From a virus, in the IMG/VR virus record IMGVR_UViG_3300035670_007084, positions 1-63,831 of that record: DNA of 63,831 nt; one strand, written 5' to 3'. The position numbers were made by a program, and so were the translations under genes. The notes under the pieces are model-generated. The model had not been told where the DNA came from. It was given only the letters and a program-made list of their open reading frames with translations, and did not search any database. This document shows, one piece after another, positions 53,448-62,640 of the stretch (within the stretch, counting starts at the first letter, position 1; the number at the start of each line of letters is the position of its first letter).

Positions 53448-53482
53448 TAAAAAAAGCGAGAGAGTAAAAAACACTCTCTCGC
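53448..53482 (-). terminator. Intrinsic terminator 1
   Basis: Minus strand perfect 10-bp hairpin GCGAGAGAGT...ACTCTCTCGC (53482-53456) followed directly by a T-run (53455-53449). It follows the 53499-53786 gene by 16 bases. The GCGAG words match the composition of the neighbouring gene. Confidence 0.9.
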
Positions 53483-53498
53483 TCTCTCTATTGTGAGC

Positions 53499-53786: not shown

Positions 53787-54585
53787 TGTCTTTTGCCTTT
53801 CGTAAAGGTTGTTATTGTGAAGTGCTTTTGCACCTCTCACAATAGAACTGAACGCAGCTATCACCCACAAGCTCGAAAGGTGCTATAAAGTGTTGAGAAT
53901 AAAAGAGTTATAACAATATGCAGAAAATTTAAAATAATCAAAAAAGAGCTTAACTCATTGTAAATAAAAGAGTTATGAAAAGAGCAACATCTAAACTCAA
54001 TGGAAATTATTATAGCTTTTAATAAAATGCAAATGGTATGCCAAAAAAAGGTTGGCATAGAAATTGCAGTATCTTTACAATATGATATTTTACTCTATGG
54101 TATGATAGTCTACCTTAGACTATAATATCATATCACTAGTAATACCATACACTTACAATATAATATCATATGGTATGGTATTATTACGCATACTTGTATA
54201 TTATATAGATCACACTACCACACTAAAGACCTAACAACATACATATCAATCACTTACAACAACACAAACAATACTAGTAAGCTACTAGTAGTTGAATCTC
54301 ACTAGTAAACTTTCCGCTACTAATCAACTTAATTGATACATTAGAACTGTTGGCTAGTAAGCTAGGTTCACTCAGGAGCTATTATAATATAATAAGTGGG
54401 GCTTGGGTAGTTTTTAGCACGATAGTTAATCCTAGGGCATTATATGCTTAATAAATGGGTGGGTGGAATTTATCGGATAACTATTAATCTTTTTAAATAT
54501 AATTAAAAATAATGCTTGACAATTGTTAAAAAATAAGTATAATACATACTAATGATATTTAATAAATATTTTATGGAGTTAATGT
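53787..54585. other. Large intergenic control region, candidate replication origin
   Basis: A roughly 800-base gap between divergent transcription units. It holds a direct repeat AATAAAAGAGTTAT twice (53898-53911 and 53964-53977), a hairpin TATGCCA/TGGCATA (54037-54043, 54053-54059), an AGTCTA-loop-TAGACT hairpin, a 10-bp inverted repeat AATACCATAC/GTATGGTATT, and four or more (A)CTAGTAA copies between 54.13 and 54.36 kb that look like iterons. A short ORF in it (about 53.86-54.06 kb) is not credible. This pattern fits an origin or regulatory centre; no initiator binding is demonstrated. Confidence 0.6.
54516..54543 (+). promoter_or_regulatory. Consensus sigma-70 promoter
   Basis: TTGACA (54516-54521), 16-base spacer, TATAAT (54538-54543). 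Expected transcription start is about 54550, with the GTG start of the glycosyltransferase at 54586 behind TATGGAGTTAATGT. It is the entry to the rightward transcription unit. Confidence 0.9.
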
Positions 54586-56652: not shown

Positions 56653-56798
56653 TAAAAATATTTTATTCTATAACTTATTTATTATCAATATGTTATAGAA
56701 ATCTTTAAAATTATTTTAAATTATTTTTAATATTCTCTTTGACAAACTTAATATTTATGATGTATCCACGTAAGTGGATAATAAGAAGGAAAATAAAA
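56653..56798. other. Short intergenic region with two hairpins
   Basis: Contains CTATAAC (56669-56675)/GTTATAG (56692-56698) and TCCAC-GTAA-GTGGA (56765-56778). The first hairpin is followed by AT-rich sequence without a clean T-run; a weak terminator is possible. The second lies near the ribosome site of the endonuclease gene and could influence its translation. Confidence 0.4.
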
Positions 56799-57320
56799 AT
56801 GAATATTTACTTTGGTGAAAATGTAGCTATTTCAGATAATATAATAAAAACAAATAAAATTAAAATAAAACAAACTCTTGTCGAAAAACCATATTATTTA
56901 TTATTTAAATATAGAAAAAAACTACTTGCAAGAAAAACAAAATATGAAACTTTACTTGAAGAAGAGTTAATATATAATAAAATATTATATTTACCACAAA
57001 CTATAATACACCCATATATTGTAGATTTCTTATTACCAGATAAAAAAACAATAATTGAATTAGATGGGGAATATCATTCTAGTCAAGAAGCCGTTGCATA
57101 TGATAACAGAAGAACAAATTATCTAGAACAATATGGATTTTCATTATTAAGATATAAAAACGACTTGACAATTTCTAATATGAATGATATAATAACAGAC
57201 ATTATTAATATAAAAAGTGATTATAATAATTTTAATTATACTACTCGTATTCTTAATTTAATAGAGTGTGGAAAAAAAACAAAAGCATTAGAGCTTGCTA
57301 ATAGATTTATTACATTATAA
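56799..57320 (+). CDS. Vsr/DUF559-like endonuclease, candidate homing enzyme
   Basis: A 173-residue protein from the ATG at 56799 (AAGGAAAATAAAA site). The C-terminal part has the fold pattern of very-short-patch-repair-type nucleases: QTIIHPYIVDFLLPDKKTIIELDGEYH (catalytic Asp and Glu-x-Asp), YDNRRTNYLEQYGFSLLRY. Similar EDxHD-type enzymes are known as phage homing endonucleases. The gene contains the consensus promoter for the downstream RNA. Mobility or function with that RNA is inferred. Confidence 0.65.
   Translation: MNIYFGENVAISDNIIKTNKIKIKQTLVEKPYYLLFKYRKKLLARKTKYETLLEEELIYNKILYLPQTIIHPYIVDFLLPDKKTIIELDGEYHSSQEAVAYDNRRTNYLEQYGFSLLRYKNDLTISNMNDIITDIINIKSDYNNFNYTTRILNLIECGKKTKALELANRFITL
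57165..57193 (+). promoter_or_regulatory. Consensus sigma-70 promoter for the large RNA and late genes
   Basis: TTGACA (57165-57170), 17-base spacer, TATAAT (57188-57193), perfect, inside the 3' part of the endonuclease gene. Predicted transcription starts near 57200, about 150 bases upstream of the structured RNA and 680 bases upstream of the packaging genes. Confidence 0.88.
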
Positions 57321-57349
57321 TTTGTTCTTTATCAATTATATATAAAGGT

Positions 57350-57810
57350 CGTTAAGCAATGATGGAATTAGTTCTATGTTTGGGGCTAGTTCCATATCTT
57401 GACATGATATGGTAAAGTTGACCGCTTTACTGTCAGGAATGATGTTATACTGTAACTCCCTAACCCGGAGAAGGTCCTACTACAAACATAGAGGTTATCA
57501 TCAACCTCGTCTGCGATACGGACGCAAATGGGTATCAAAGAGGTTCTTACTAATGATAATGTTCTTATCTTAGTAACGGCTGATTAATGATGACTAGTAT
57601 TATAAATGATTAAAATCCCATATAAGTATATGGATGATGGGTTCGGTGTCTTTAAAGTGTTCGCTACACGAACACAAATCGTTTTTAGATTGTTAAGTTA
57701 GTAATTGTTTTGATGTCAGTAAAATAAAACAATTAGTAAGTTAACAATCGCTGATAAGTAAAACTTATCAGCATTCAGTTCTTTAGTATTTTTTAAAAAT
57801 CTCTATTTTT
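57350..57810 (+). ncRNA. Large structured RNA with pseudoknot, about 460 nt
   Basis: The 556-base gap before the packaging genes has no credible ORF but at least ten compatible helices. These include GGAATTAG/CTAGTTCC (57364-57371, 57386-57393), whose loop holds CTATGTTTG pairing with CAAACATAG (57483-57491) to give a 9-bp pseudoknot, and ATATC/GATAT, GTAAAG/CTTTAC and GAGGTT/AACCTC hairpins. Further ones are TTACTA-GATAA/TTATC-TAGTAA, CCATAT/ATATGG, GTGTTCG/CGAACAC (57657-57663, 57669-57675), a long hairpin with GATTGTTAA/TTAACAATC, and GCTGATAAGT/ACTTATCAGC (57750-57759, 57763-57772). A consensus promoter lies upstream. Size and complexity are reminiscent of GOLLD or ROOL RNAs, but no family match is claimed. 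Confidence 0.7.
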
Positions 57811-57876
57811 AAAGCTGCCTAGAAGTGTGTATGTATAGGAATTGATGTAAGAAATAAAAGAAAAGGATAAAAACCC

Positions 57877-58197
57877 TTGCCAGCAAGAAGCAAAAGAGAT
57901 AATTCATTCAAGAGAAAATATTGGCATCACAGAAAAAGAAAACCTATCTATGTATCATTTGATTCTAAAGAAATCATTGATAAATGGGAAGAGTTGACTA
58001 AACTACTAAAAGAACGAACAATTGATTATAAGATGATGGTGTTGTGGTTTGATAACTTTCTTTATAAGGAATTGAGGAATGATGAACGAGTACGATCTAC
58101 AAGTGCAGAAGCTGGTATCGCAATACAAAAAAGTTCCGAATATGGCGAGCAAGACAGATGCGGAACTAATGGTAATTGCGGAAAAAGCAATATCTAA
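57877..58197 (+). CDS. 106-residue basic protein upstream of terminase genes
   Basis: Probable TTG start behind AAGGATAAAAACCC; MPARSKRDNSFKRKYWHHRKRKPIYVSF... is strongly basic, with an acidic helix after it. The last 40 codons overlap the next gene in another frame by 119 bases, and the residues there (RSTSAEAGIAIQ...) look low-quality, so the true product may stop or shift near 58080. A small DNA-binding packaging accessory protein is possible. Confidence 0.45.
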   Translation: MPARSKRDNSFKRKYWHHRKRKPIYVSFDSKEIIDKWEELTKLLKERTIDYKMMVLWFDNFLYKELRNDERVRSTSAEAGIAIQKSSEYGEQDRCGTNGNCGKSNI

Positions 58198-58921
58198 GAG
58201 AAAAGCTAAAGAGTCTGCTCCTGACTTTGATTTTAAAGCAGTATTCAAAGACAAAGAGTATATTGATTTAGCTAACTCATTATTAAATAAATACTTAAGT
58301 GATTTTAATATAGAAACACAAGCTGACAGAAGTACGCTGATGCAGTTAATTCAGCTAGAAGTAATTCATAAAATGCTTTTTGAGAAGCTTGTAAGAACTG
58401 TAGATGGCACCTCTAAGGTGCAAAGTCAGAACCTTAAGTTGGTTCACGATAATATGGAGCAGCAACGCAAGCTCAAAACCGATTTAGGTGTTAGTGGATC
58501 ACAAGAAGGTTCTGTCTATAATTATATTCAACAGTTGATTAAGCGGGGAACTGTTTGGGCTGAAACCCTGAACAAAGCTGATAGGACATTTTTCTGTCAA
58601 CACTGTTCTCAGCCTAATCTTCTGTTGTTTAAAATAGATCAATACTTTCCAATTAAACACCCTTTCTTTCAGGGAAGATATATTACCAACCATAAACTTA
58701 TCGAATTATATCTTGAGAAAAAATTAACAGAAAAAGATATTGCTGAAATATTTGATGTAGCTAAAATTGATTATATGAAGTGGATTATATCTAAGTTCTA
58801 TACTAAAGAGCATTTAGATAAAATAAAAGAAACTCAAAGTAAGCATTATAATAGAAAGTTTTCTGATGGTAAAGAAGAGAATCCCGAAGAAGAAACTACT
58901 GAACCTAGTACGGAAGTATAA
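58079..58921 (+). CDS. Putative small terminase subunit / packaging accessory protein
   Basis: A 280-residue protein with charged helical N-terminal half (residues 3-60, coiled-coil-like), a middle with LQLIQLEVIHKMLFEKLV and repeated helices, then FFCQHCSQPNLLLFK (CxxC). After that comes a helix-turn-helix-like LTEKDIAEIFDVAKIDYMKWIISKF (about 224-248). Its location directly upstream of the large terminase and the helix-turn-helix are those of a small terminase-type DNA recogniser, but sequence similarity to a named family could not be judged. Confidence 0.5.
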   Translation: MMNEYDLQVQKLVSQYKKVPNMASKTDAELMVIAEKAISKRKAKESAPDFDFKAVFKDKEYIDLANSLLNKYLSDFNIETQADRSTLMQLIQLEVIHKMLFEKLVRTVDGTSKVQSQNLKLVHDNMEQQRKLKTDLGVSGSQEGSVYNYIQQLIKRGTVWAETLNKADRTFFCQHCSQPNLLLFKIDQYFPIKHPFFQGRYITNHKLIELYLEKKLTEKDIAEIFDVAKIDYMKWIISKFYTKEHLDKIKETQSKHYNRKFSDGKEENPEEETTEPSTEV

Positions 58922-59225
58922 GAAAAAACTAAAGCTCGATAATTACGAGATTGATATAATTTTTTCGGATTCCCCTAGGCATATAGTAACTAATAAAATT
59001 GTAGCTGATAACTCAGCTAGGGCAGATGTTGTTAGGTCTGATAGTGATGAAAATGAGTTTACGATAGTTTTCTATGATTTTTCAAATATTGAATCAGATG
59101 TAATTCACGAACTGCTACATATTAGATTTTGGGATGTGTGTAAAAAATATAAATATAAGAAACTAAACAACTTAGAGCACGATTTCATAGAGGCGTTAAT
59201 TCCTATTTGGTGTAATGTATGCTAA
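58866..59225 (+). CDS. Zincin-type metallopeptidase-like protein
   Basis: A 119-residue protein with HELLH (H81, E82, H85) in SDVIHELLHIRFWD, the HExxH zinc motif of SprT-like or gluzincin-type proteases, and a later E-H that may give the third ligand. The N-terminal 22 residues are Lys-rich. It overlaps the upstream gene by 56 bases and abuts the terminase, so it may act in head maturation or packaging, or on a host protein. The reading is clear; the role is inference. Confidence 0.6.
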   Translation: MVKKRIPKKKLLNLVRKYKKKLKLDNYEIDIIFSDSPRHIVTNKIVADNSARADVVRSDSDENEFTIVFYDFSNIESDVIHELLHIRFWDVCKKYKYKKLNNLEHDFIEALIPIWCNVC

Positions 59226-60823
59226 AAAAATTGAGTGAAGAAGAACAAATATTGTTTGAATGTCTTTGTATGTCTAGAAGTTTTGTTGAGATTATGTTTA
59301 GTAATCTTGATAATCTACTTGAGTTTGAAGATGAAAAATTTGCGTTCATTAGACCATATCAGGAAACGATGTTATCATATGAATACTCAGTTGCTACCGA
59401 TCCAGAACTTTCAGATAAAGAAAACTTTTTAAGAAAGAAAGGTGCTGGTGATAGTTATGCTATTGCTAGTCGAAGAATTGGTAAATCATTAGTATTTCTA
59501 ATATGTGATATGTTGCAATCAATTATGTTACTTGCTGGATGTGAAACAGCGTTTGGTTCATACGATGCAAACCATGTTAGAAAAATATTTTCAAGTATTA
59601 TTCCGGTTGTTGAATATCATCCTTGTTATAAAGGTATAAAGAAAGTTTATAATCAAACCCCACAATACTTATATATAGGTAAGAATGGAATGAAAATTAG
59701 TGGGGTTAATGAGAATGCTATAAACCAAAGAAAAGCTGGTGAAAACTGGATTGGGCTTCATCCTATGAAAACATGGTATGAAGAAATCAGCAGATGGTGT
59801 TCTGTTGCACAAGAGAAGCAAACAGAAGCTGTATCAGAGCTTGGTGTTATTTTTAGAGGAAGTGGTATGGCTGATTGCACAAAGAATTCCCCGGCTGGTG
59901 AAATAGTTTCCGATAGAAGAAATAAAAACATTATTATTAATTATAGTCAGTTTGTTAATCCAACCTGGGATGAGTATACACGCAAAGAATCTTTAAAGAA
60001 ATATAAAAGCGAGGCATCGTTTGGTTGGAAAGTATATGTTCTTGGTGAGTTAGTTGAAGATGGTTACTCGGCTTTAGATATGAAGCTTGTTAGTGAATGT
60101 TACAACGACACCACAGAAATAAAAAACATAGAAATAAACAAAACAACTTTTTCATATTATCAGGATTTGTTGATTGTTGATAAGCCAAAAGATGCAGAAT
60201 GTACTTATATAGCTACCGATATATCAGATATTGGAACGACAGAAACCGTTATAATATTTGATACATTGTCTGGTTTAAAGTATAGGTATAACATAACTAT
60301 GCTAGGGCTCACGGATGAGCAAATTTATTTAGTGTTAAAATTTCTTGGAGAGAAGCTTGGTGCCAATGTATTAGCATTGGATTGTGGTGAGGCAGCTGGG
60401 CGTGGAGTATCAAGGCGGTTATTAAAAGATTTCTCCGCTGAAAATATTTTTGAATATGCTGGTAATAAAAAAATAGTTGTTGAATTTGAAAGAACAAAAG
60501 ATAACTATTTAAAATATGATACCGCTGGCAAAGCAATTGTTAAAGAAGAGTTTATGTCAGAATGGGCAGTTCAAATAATAAAAGAAATTTTTTATAATAA
60601 AAGAATAGACATACCAATTGATCATAAATTAGATGAGCAACTAAGCAAGCTTGTTTCTACTAAGTCGGGTAACAGAGTATTGTATGCTATAAGTGGTGAA
60701 GATCATTTATTTGATGCCTTTAAAGTTTTTTGTTGTGCGTGGTGGCAGAATCACTTATCAATAATATCACCGATTAAAAAGAAAAAGTTTTGCAAAACCG
60801 GAGTTACTACTGTAAATAGATAG
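59219..60823 (+). CDS. terL: Terminase large subunit
   Basis: A 534-residue packaging motor and DNA-cutting enzyme. ATPase part: SRRIGKS (84-90, Walker A), hydrophobic strand and TWYEE (about 188-193, Walker B and catalytic Glu). The nuclease part (RNase-H-like) has CTYIATDISDIGTTET (first Asp), VLALDCGEAAGRGV (second acidic) and GEDHLFDAFKVF (third, near the end). It starts 6 bases inside the preceding gene end, coupling translation. The motif set is the strongest evidence that this window is a tailed phage. Confidence 0.92.
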   Translation: MLKKLSEEEQILFECLCMSRSFVEIMFSNLDNLLEFEDEKFAFIRPYQETMLSYEYSVATDPELSDKENFLRKKGAGDSYAIASRRIGKSLVFLICDMLQSIMLLAGCETAFGSYDANHVRKIFSSIIPVVEYHPCYKGIKKVYNQTPQYLYIGKNGMKISGVNENAINQRKAGENWIGLHPMKTWYEEISRWCSVAQEKQTEAVSELGVIFRGSGMADCTKNSPAGEIVSDRRNKNIIINYSQFVNPTWDEYTRKESLKKYKSEASFGWKVYVLGELVEDGYSALDMKLVSECYNDTTEIKNIEINKTTFSYYQDLLIVDKPKDAECTYIATDISDIGTTETVIIFDTLSGLKYRYNITMLGLTDEQIYLVLKFLGEKLGANVLALDCGEAAGRGVSRRLLKDFSAENIFEYAGNKKIVVEFERTKDNYLKYDTAGKAIVKEEFMSEWAVQIIKEIFYNKRIDIPIDHKLDEQLSKLVSTKSGNRVLYAISGEDHLFDAFKVFCCAWWQNHLSIISPIKKKKFCKTGVTTVNR

Positions 60824-60834
60824 ATGGAGAATAT

Positions 60835-62640
60835 ATGACAGATCCACAAGCAAGAGGTTCCGCACTAAGCAGTCAATACTATAAGATGTTGATTGACCTT
60901 ATGACATTTTCTGGTAAGGGTGCAATAAAAGTACCAACATCGTATCATCAACGAGTAAAAGAAGTTAAGAAACTTATCGAAGTTGATAATACAGGATTGG
61001 CTACCACTCTGACTAGTTTCCAAATAAATGCAGCTACAGTACCAATTAATATTGAAACCCAAAACAAACAACTAACAAAGATTCTTGATGCTTGGAGTCA
61101 AACTGTAAACTTTAAAATGAAGATGGTTGAAACTGGATTACAGGGTTTGATGGGGCAATATTATAAAGAAAGATGGCAGGGTTCTAGCTTTATAGTATTA
61201 AAGACAGTTTGGGAAAATGTTGGTGGATTTAATTTACCTGTTCAGATGTATCTATTAGACGGTGGTAGTATTTATAGTGTAAAAGAAAAGGGTGAACCAA
61301 TTATTGTTGGTAATCCAAAATACGAAATAAGATATGGTTCAAAAGAAACAGATAAAGAACCAATAGTTGATAACAAAAATATAAAATATTTCTTTCAAAA
61401 TCCTTTTGGAACATGGGGTGAGATATATCCATCACCTTATATTATTAATCGTGGTATTTATTATAATCAGCAGTTCTTAAATGAAATCAAAGAGAAGGGC
61501 GCAAGCGTAATTAAACGAGCGATTGAACATATCTTTGCTCTCAAAAAAGGTTTTAAAGAAGCCGTCCTTCAAGATAAAGATGCTAACATATATGATAAGA
61601 CAGACTTAGAAAGAACCGATAAAGATTTAAGAGATGTTTTAGATTCTAGAAAATATACTGAAGATATGACAACATATACTTCCAATTTTGATACTGAAAT
61701 GGAACACATTATTCCAGAGTATAAAAGGATATTGAATGCGGAAGTAATAGTTCCTGCTGAAAAAGGTTTATTATCTTCTCTTGGTTTTGTTGAAATGTAT
61801 AGTATGCAAACGAGGAAAGAAGAAGTATTTAATCCAAAACCTTTTATGGCGGAAGCACAAGATGGTATTAATGATTTTGTTTCTTTAATAGGTGATGTTG
61901 TTTATACTATTATAGAAGAAAACAGAGCAACGCATCCAAAATATAGCAATGTTGAACCAATTAAAATAAATACTGGACCAATGACCACATTTATTGACAG
62001 CGAGGCTAAAAAGATTCTTAGAAGTATTTATGATCGAGGTGGTATTTCTAAAAGAACGCTTACTGAAATTGGTGCAGGTTGTGATTTTGATATTGAACTT
62101 AATCGTATCACACAAGAGAAAAAAGATGGCGTTGATAAGGTTATGTCACCTAATCCAATTCAGGTATCTGATACCCTTCTTCTTAGTGATAGGACAAGCA
62201 CTACGGTTCAGAAAAAACAAAACGAGGAAGAAGATATTCCCGATGATAAACAAAGTATTGAAACCCGTAACTTTGAAGTTTCACAAAAAGAGAATGGTAA
62301 AATAAAAGAAGATTTAGTTACCGCACCATATGATGATATATCTGAGTTACCCGATACAGTAAAGGTTCTTCCTGATAAAGCAAAAAAAATGTGGATGGAA
62401 GTATTTAACTCTGTATATAAAAATAAAAAAGATGAAACTATAGCTATTAAGTCTGCTTGGTCTACAGTTAAGAAATATTTTAAGAAAAATAAAGATGGTT
62501 CTTGGGTTCAAAAAGAAAAAGCAAACTTAGATACAGTTGATTTTAATGAGCTATTAGATGTTCAAAAACTCACTATGCTTTCTAAACAAAACAAACTTTT
62601 AGATAAGATTTTGAAAGAGAACGAAAATGAAACTATTTAG
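60835..62640 (+). CDS. Portal-like protein fused to a C-terminal ChaB domain
   Basis: A 601-residue protein directly after the terminase, where phages encode the portal that connects head and tail. The first 350 residues (e.g. YHQRVKEVKKLIEVDNTGLATTLTSFQINAATV and GGFNLPVQMYLLDGGSIY) have the helix and beta pattern of portal proteins. Residues about 500-560 (LPDKAKKMWMEVFNSVYKN...AWSTVKKYFKKNKDGSW) match the ChaB family pattern. That fusion is unusual. An acidic linker of about 70 residues separates the two. Confidence 0.75.
   Translation: MTDPQARGSALSSQYYKMLIDLMTFSGKGAIKVPTSYHQRVKEVKKLIEVDNTGLATTLTSFQINAATVPINIETQNKQLTKILDAWSQTVNFKMKMVETGLQGLMGQYYKERWQGSSFIVLKTVWENVGGFNLPVQMYLLDGGSIYSVKEKGEPIIVGNPKYEIRYGSKETDKEPIVDNKNIKYFFQNPFGTWGEIYPSPYIINRGIYYNQQFLNEIKEKGASVIKRAIEHIFALKKGFKEAVLQDKDANIYDKTDLERTDKDLRDVLDSRKYTEDMTTYTSNFDTEMEHIIPEYKRILNAEVIVPAEKGLLSSLGFVEMYSMQTRKEEVFNPKPFMAEAQDGINDFVSLIGDVVYTIIEENRATHPKYSNVEPIKINTGPMTTFIDSEAKKILRSIYDRGGISKRTLTEIGAGCDFDIELNRITQEKKDGVDKVMSPNPIQVSDTLLLSDRTSTTVQKKQNEEEDIPDDKQSIETRNFEVSQKENGKIKEDLVTAPYDDISELPDTVKVLPDKAKKMWMEVFNSVYKNKKDETIAIKSAWSTVKKYFKKNKDGSWVQKEKANLDTVDFNELLDVQKLTMLSKQNKLLDKILKENENETI

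What the first reader, a model, noticed from the sequence alone, without database searches (positions are those of the whole stretch)
57165..57876. Large structured RNA with its own perfect promoter in front of the packaging genes
Ten or more helices, including a 9-bp pseudoknot, fill the 556-base gap before the terminase genes, and a perfect TTGACA-17-TATAAT promoter sits about 150 bases upstream. No ORF explains the conservation of pairing. Size and position resemble the large phage RNAs GOLLD and ROOL, but I cannot match it to either. It may be a new member or a new class involved in packaging, assembly or late control.
Basis: partly seen in the sequence, partly recalled or inferred. Interest (0 to 1): 0.82.

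Follow-up and report, generated by a model that had tools for sequence, protein, structure and literature searches.

The report
Structured RNA leader before phage packaging genes
In an uncultivated, isolated phage lineage, the 556 bases just before the DNA-packaging genes very probably fold as RNA downstream of a strong promoter; no relative of this RNA was found anywhere, and comparison with 28 related contigs suggests it is a leader that controls the packaging genes rather than a ROOL or GOLLD RNA.

Summary
The 556-base gap (57321-57876), the perfect TTGACA-17-TATAAT promoter (57165-57193) and the long pseudoknot (10 Watson-Crick pairs) are all real. Folding exceeds chance (z -6.4), but the excess sits in two places: 57345-57437, on the + strand only, and a double palindrome at 57688-57772. 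About 240 bases between them are ordinary. Two of 53 random 556-base segments of the window fold nearly as well. "Conservation of pairing" is unsupported: no homologue turned up in GenBank phages, plasmids, 28 related contigs, 194 host-class genomes or, by one motif, IMG/VR. So covariation cannot be tested. Rfam gives no match to ROOL, GOLLD, group I or anything else. The gene after the gap belongs to a terminase operon (TerL fold confirmed). In relatives the same place carries tRNA islands, a manA-like RNA, other structured noncoding DNA or, in at least five genomes, a promoter, tiny leader ORF and intrinsic terminator directly before the small-terminase gene. I therefore favour a cis-acting structured leader of the late operon (0.42) over an independent RNA gene (0.27) or a non-functional or DNA-level element (0.24). 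Interest is moderate: an orphan candidate RNA, plus a testable late-operon leader cassette.

The parts
57165..57193 (+). perfect sigma-70-type promoter TTGACA-17-TATAAT with extended -10 TG; predicted transcript start about 57200; lies inside the DUF559 ORF
   Evidence: relatives carry a promoter of the same type before the small terminase
57321..57876 (+). 556-nt noncoding gap that folds better than shuffled sequence; candidate structured leader or noncoding RNA
   Evidence: fold z -6.4; no Rfam match
57345..57437 (+). 5' structured domain, the only part with a strand-specific folding signal
   Evidence: z -4.2 on + against -1.0 on -
57362..57395 (+). hairpin, 15 bp with G-U pairs when fully closed, 11 bp when its loop is free for the pseudoknot
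57373..57382 (+). 5' strand of the 10-bp pseudoknot (loop of the hairpin above)
   Evidence: about isoenergetic with the fully closed hairpin
57483..57492 (+). 3' strand of the 10-bp pseudoknot
57397..57438 (+). two-part hairpin (57397-57404 with 57431-57438, enclosing 57412-57418 with 57424-57430)
   Evidence: MFE fold
57657..57675 (+). 7-bp hairpin followed by a broken T tract; weak terminator-like site
   Evidence: not scored as a terminator by the stricter scan
57688..57749 (.). 24-bp inverted repeat (2 mismatches, 14-nt loop), the longest palindrome in the window; works on either strand
57750..57772 (.). perfect 10-bp hairpin directly after the long palindrome
56799..57320 (+). DUF559 (EDxHD/Vsr-like) endonuclease ORF, probable mobile gene, 21% GC; ORF can also start at 56739
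   Evidence: Pfam DUF559 E 3e-18; composition
57877..58197 (+). small basic ORF with TTG start and RBS aaaagga; no homologue found
58079..58921 (+). probable small terminase subunit, conserved before TerL in the clade (Zn-ribbon CxxC motif, weak terminase-small match)
59219..60823 (+). large terminase subunit
   Evidence: Foldseek of the model: T4 gp17 E 7.8e-10 and other TerL
60835..62640 (+). probable portal protein (by position) with C-terminal ChaB domain

Best explanation
57321-57876 is the structured 5' leader of the phage's packaging (late) operon, transcribed from the promoter at 57165-57193 and acting in cis. The nascent leader can fold into a hairpin whose loop pairs with 57483-57492 (pseudoknot), or into a longer closed hairpin of about equal energy, followed by the hairpins 57657-57675, 57688-57749 and 57750-57772. 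I infer that these decide whether transcription continues into, or intact mRNA reaches, the terminase genes: attenuation or antitermination, or processing at the long stem. Shown: the promoter match, the structure's excess over chance, the position, and in relatives a promoter, short leader and intrinsic terminator at the same place. Inferred: that the region is transcribed as one unit, that the structure controls expression, and by which mechanism.
For: The promoter is a 12/12 match with TG, and such sites are enriched about 15-fold in this window and mostly sit just before genes. The structured gap lies on the same strand between that promoter and the terminase operon; TerL is confirmed by fold and the small terminase by clade conservation. 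The 57345-57437 domain folds better than chance on the + strand only. The pseudoknot is found in 0.35% of shuffles and is isoenergetic with the closed hairpin (cost 10.4, gain 10.5 kcal/mol). In relatives, promoter-leader-terminator cassettes lie within 450 nt before the small terminase in 5 of 20, with only 10 in all 557,624 strand-bases scanned. Intrinsic terminators end within about 45 nt of, or at, that start codon in 7 of 20. The motif TATA[AC]TnnnnnTAGAGG occurs once per record in five records, each time at the terminase.
Against: The window itself lacks the clade's AGTAGAGG motif, mini-ORF and a good terminator, so the analogy is one of place and promoter type, not sequence. The promoter lies inside coding sequence of an AT-rich gene and could be a chance match there. 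No homologue, hence no covariation. Much of the gap (57438-57680) folds no better than chance. The strongest palindrome is symmetric and could be a DNA signal.
Confidence: 0.42

Rival explanations
1. An independent structured noncoding RNA gene (about 480-650 nt) made from the 57165 promoter, carried as cargo in an RNA-gene island before the terminase and acting in trans, as ROOL and GOLLD presumably do.
For: In relatives the place before the terminase holds tRNA islands (11 in L003, 23 in L004, also L017, L020, L026-L028, L035), a manA-like RNA (L005) and large structured noncoding stretches (L038 548 nt z -6.5; L031 741 nt z -5.6). ROOL and GOLLD lie near tRNA islands in phages (PMC12286853). 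Here the gap has a promoter and a pseudoknot and sits beside a homing-type endonuclease gene.
Against: No match to ROOL, GOLLD or any Rfam family; no homologue in any phage; no good terminator at the 3' end; the middle third does not fold better than chance; no tRNA in the window.
Confidence: 0.27
2. No RNA-level function: palindromic DNA (protein-binding or packaging site, or mobile-element debris left with the DUF559 gene) that happens to fold.
For: The largest folding signal, 57681-57790, is equally strong on both strands (z -9.1 and -9.0), and the 24-bp palindrome is the longest in the window. Two of 53 other 556-nt segments fold nearly as well. The neighbouring gene is probably mobile and of foreign composition.
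Against: The 57345-57437 domain folds well on the + strand only, and the pseudoknot is unlikely by chance.
Confidence: 0.24
3. A divergent self-splicing (group I-like) intron with its endonuclease gene.
For: An EDxHD-type (DUF559) endonuclease gene is directly upstream, and the RNA has a long pseudoknot.
Against: No Intron_gpI match (where the control genomes did ring). The following ORF has its own RBS, and a stop codon 9 nt upstream in frame, so no coding exon is interrupted. The pseudoknot strand sits in a hairpin loop, unlike P3. No plausible P7 with the conserved G-C pair was found by eye.
Confidence: 0.03

Closest known systems
Late-operon leaders of lambdoid phages (lambda pR'-6S RNA-tR', Q-dependent; HK022 put RNA)
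   Same: strong constitutive-type promoter, untranslated leader with RNA or terminator elements placed directly before late (terminase) genes; clearest in relatives L010, L026, L029, L031, L032
   Different: no Q-like factor or put element identified; the window has no good terminator and a much longer leader; comparison with lambda rests on general knowledge
ROOL RNA (RF03087)
   Same: phage-borne, about 550-600 nt, pseudoknotted, near what is a tRNA island in relatives
   Different: no covariance-model match; no homologues
GOLLD RNA (RF02032)
   Same: large phage RNA near tRNA islands
   Different: no match; shorter; no 3' conserved domain recognised
manA RNA (RF01745)
   Same: pseudoknotted RNA in phages; a sub-threshold match (34.6 bits) lies directly before the terminase in relative L005
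   Different: no match in the window

Membership tests
ROOL | match to Rfam RF03087 | tested here: not met
   cmscan with E up to 10 and cmsearch of the record gave none; note that no control genome rang, so the search had no positive control
ROOL | location near tRNA island in a phage or prophage | tested here: inconclusive
   no tRNA in the window, but tRNA islands at the same place in about nine relatives
ROOL | homo-oligomeric RNA cage | not testable with these tools
   needs cryo-EM or mass measurement
GOLLD | match to Rfam RF02032 (conserved 3' domain) | tested here: not met
Group I intron | match to Intron_gpI core | tested here: not met
   control genomes rang
Group I intron | interrupts an exon that is restored by splicing | tested here: not met
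   next ORF has its own RBS and an in-frame stop 9 nt upstream
manA RNA | match to Rfam RF01745 | tested here: not met
   no match in G000; match only in L005's record
Lambda-type late leader | strong promoter upstream of the late/terminase operon on the same strand | tested here: met
   promoter at 57165-57193
Lambda-type late leader | intrinsic terminator between promoter and first late gene | tested here: inconclusive
   met in 7 of 20 relatives; in the window only a weak site at 57657-57675, none by the stricter scan
Lambda-type late leader | antiterminator protein or RNA that lets polymerase read through | not testable with these tools
   needs transcription assays; no Q homologue was searched for
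New structured-RNA class | covariation among homologues | not testable with these tools
   no homologue found

The most novel reading that the evidence does not exclude
A new class of large pseudoknotted phage RNA that sits before the terminase operon in an uncharacterised phage clade and switches between a closed hairpin and a pseudoknot to gate late transcription, or acts in trans during packaging.
Probability: 0.13. Interest if true: 0.72.

Novelty: new variant of a known kind. Interest (0 to 1): 0.4.

Why it matters
How uncultivated phages time their packaging genes is almost unknown. The relatives show a recurring promoter, tiny leader ORF and terminator unit right before the terminase gene. 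The window shows the same place occupied by a much larger folded leader. If leader RNAs gate late transcription across this clade, that gives a simple, testable model of late control outside the lambda group. If the RNA is instead an independent gene, it adds an orphan to the small set of large phage RNAs.

Tried and rejected
Rfam at gathering and at E up to 10 found nothing usable in the window. Direct ROOL, GOLLD, group I and manA searches of the record were negative. Nucleotide searches of phages and plasmids gave only short AT-rich chance hits. Apparent shared words between window, L005 and L007 (GTCGTTAARCAA, GTTAAACAA, AAAGGCGAG) were rejected as chance, since BLAST E was about 0.8 or worse and the order was permuted. 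A covariance model of 57345-57530 found nothing in 335 kb of relatives, in 19 full records, or in 194 genomes of the host class suggested by L039. A core motif with a free stem had no hit in IMG/VR. A terminal closing helix (57321-57345 with 57830-57858) is only weakly above chance, with 3-6% of controls as good, and was not relied on. A loop-loop pairing 57399-57404 with 57713-57719 was noted but is short enough to be chance. Two promoter-motif searches used wrong spacing and were discarded.

Full report
What is there. The window is a 63,831-base virus record. The gap 57321-57876 is 556 bases long, between a DUF559 endonuclease ORF that ends at 57320 (Pfam E 3e-18) and a TTG-start ORF at 57877 with a plausible ribosome-binding site. 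The perfect TTGACA-17-TATAAT promoter at 57165-57193 exists and has a TG before the -10. It lies inside the endonuclease reading frame. That alone would make it suspect, but perfect sites are enriched in this window (6 against 0.38 expected). The others sit just before genes, three of them overlapping the 3' end of the upstream gene, as here.

Is the structure more than chance? The gap folds with z -6.4 on the + strand and -6.0 on the - strand. Dividing it shows that the signal has two sources. The first is 57345-57437: z -4.2 on +, only -1.0 on -, which points to an RNA of this strand. The second is 57681-57790, a 24-bp palindrome followed by a perfect 10-bp hairpin: z about -9 on both strands, so it could be RNA or DNA. 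The part between them gives z 0.06 (57438-57545) and -1.3 (57531-57680). Of 53 other 556-base segments, two reach -6.1 or lower. The pseudoknot is 57373-57382 with 57483-57492, ten Watson-Crick pairs. A hairpin of at least 7 bp whose loop pairs 10 bp elsewhere is seen in 0.35% of shuffles. Freeing the two strands costs 10.4 kcal/mol and pairing them gains 10.5, so by this rough estimate the closed hairpin and the pseudoknot are alternatives of similar stability. The long palindrome is the longest in the window.

Is it conserved? This cannot be shown. No homologue of the RNA was found in 50,697 phage records, 72,556 plasmids, by one motif in IMG/VR, in the upstream regions of relatives, by covariance model in relatives, or in 194 genomes of the class to which the contig L039 was assigned. 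The empty model searches had no positive control other than the window itself.

Rfam. There is no match at the gathering threshold for the whole window, and nothing but chance matches up to E 10. Direct searches with ROOL, group I and GOLLD were empty. The group I search rang in control genomes; the ROOL search rang in none, so its emptiness is weaker evidence.

The neighbourhood. The gene 59219-60823 has no Pfam or PDB sequence match, but its predicted structure matches T4 gp17 and other large terminases. Its alignment led to 28 related contigs in all, all at 42% identity or less. The ORF 58079-58921 is conserved before TerL in nearly all relatives and is the probable small terminase.

What relatives carry at the same place. 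About nine contigs have tRNA islands there (23 tRNAs in L004, 11 in L003). L005 has a manA-like RNA directly before TerL (34.6 bits, E 3.5e-9 in its record, below the curated cut-off). L038 and L031 have large noncoding stretches that fold far better than shuffles (z -6.5 and -5.6) without Rfam matches. L010, L026, L029, L031 and L032 have a sigma-70-type promoter followed by TATAGTAGAGG or a close variant, a mini-ORF of 10-30 codons, and an intrinsic terminator directly before the small-terminase start; L011, L020, L023 and L038 have parts of this unit. Cassettes of this kind occur in 5 of 20 relatives within 450 nt of that start, against 10 in all 557,624 strand-bases scanned. The motif TATA[AC]TnnnnnTAGAGG occurs exactly once in each of five records, each time at this place. 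In the window the promoter is at the right place and of the right type, but the AGAGG element, the mini-ORF and a good terminator are missing.

How it most likely works. The relatives indicate that the packaging operon in this clade commonly starts with its own promoter and a leader carrying a transcription stop, the logic of the lambda late promoter, its short leader RNA and terminator (general knowledge; Q-dependent antitermination of late genes, PMC7171158 abstract). I read the window's gap as a longer, folded version of that leader. Shown: promoter sequence, position, structure above chance, and the clade pattern. Inferred: transcription as one unit, the switch, and its effect on the terminase genes. 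The main rival is an independent RNA gene in an RNA-gene island; the second is palindromic DNA without RNA function. A group I intron is unlikely: no model match, no interrupted coding exon, and the pseudoknot is not of P3-P7 type.

Limits. All folding statements are single-sequence predictions. The portal assignment rests on position. The host is unknown; one relative was binned with a cyanobacterial metagenome-assembled genome, which may be a binning artefact.

Noticed in passing
L010:6765-6954, L026:3629-3806, L029:3189-3323, L031:3623-3746, L032:3716-3853; similar L023:2318 and L038:1386: Recurring unit before the small-terminase gene: strong promoter, TAGAGG at the transcript's 5' end, mini-ORF of 10-30 codons (mostly beginning Met-Ser), then an intrinsic terminator next to the terminase start codon; looks like a leader-peptide or lambda tR'-type attenuator.
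   Followed up: partly
L005:4786-5032: manA-like RNA (RF01745, 34.6 bits, below the curated cut-off, E 3.5e-9 in its record) directly before the large terminase gene, not before a sugar or nucleotide gene.
   Followed up: partly
L038:1203-1750 and L031:440-1180: Noncoding stretches of 548 and 741 nt, fold z -6.5 and -5.6, in the region before the terminase; no Rfam match and no sequence similarity to the window's RNA.
   Followed up: partly
L008:1415-1474 (-): Type-P5 twister ribozyme (43.9 bits, above cut-off) in a phage contig of this clade.
   Followed up: no
L004:4267-7155, L003:307-5023, L020, L026, L027, L017, L028, L035: tRNA islands (up to 23 tRNAs) directly before the terminase genes; the island in L003 also holds a DUF559 endonuclease gene like the window's.
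   Followed up: partly
window 54059-54585: Divergent noncoding region between the - strand and + strand gene blocks, with an 18-bp palindrome (54080-54133) and a perfect promoter at 54516; probable control region of the rightward operon.
   Followed up: no
window 53453-53485: Strong hairpin (lowest fold z in the window, -8.6 on the - strand) between two leftward genes; probable terminator.
   Followed up: no
window 57877-58197: Small basic TTG-start ORF overlapping the small terminase out of frame; no homologue in relatives.
   Followed up: no
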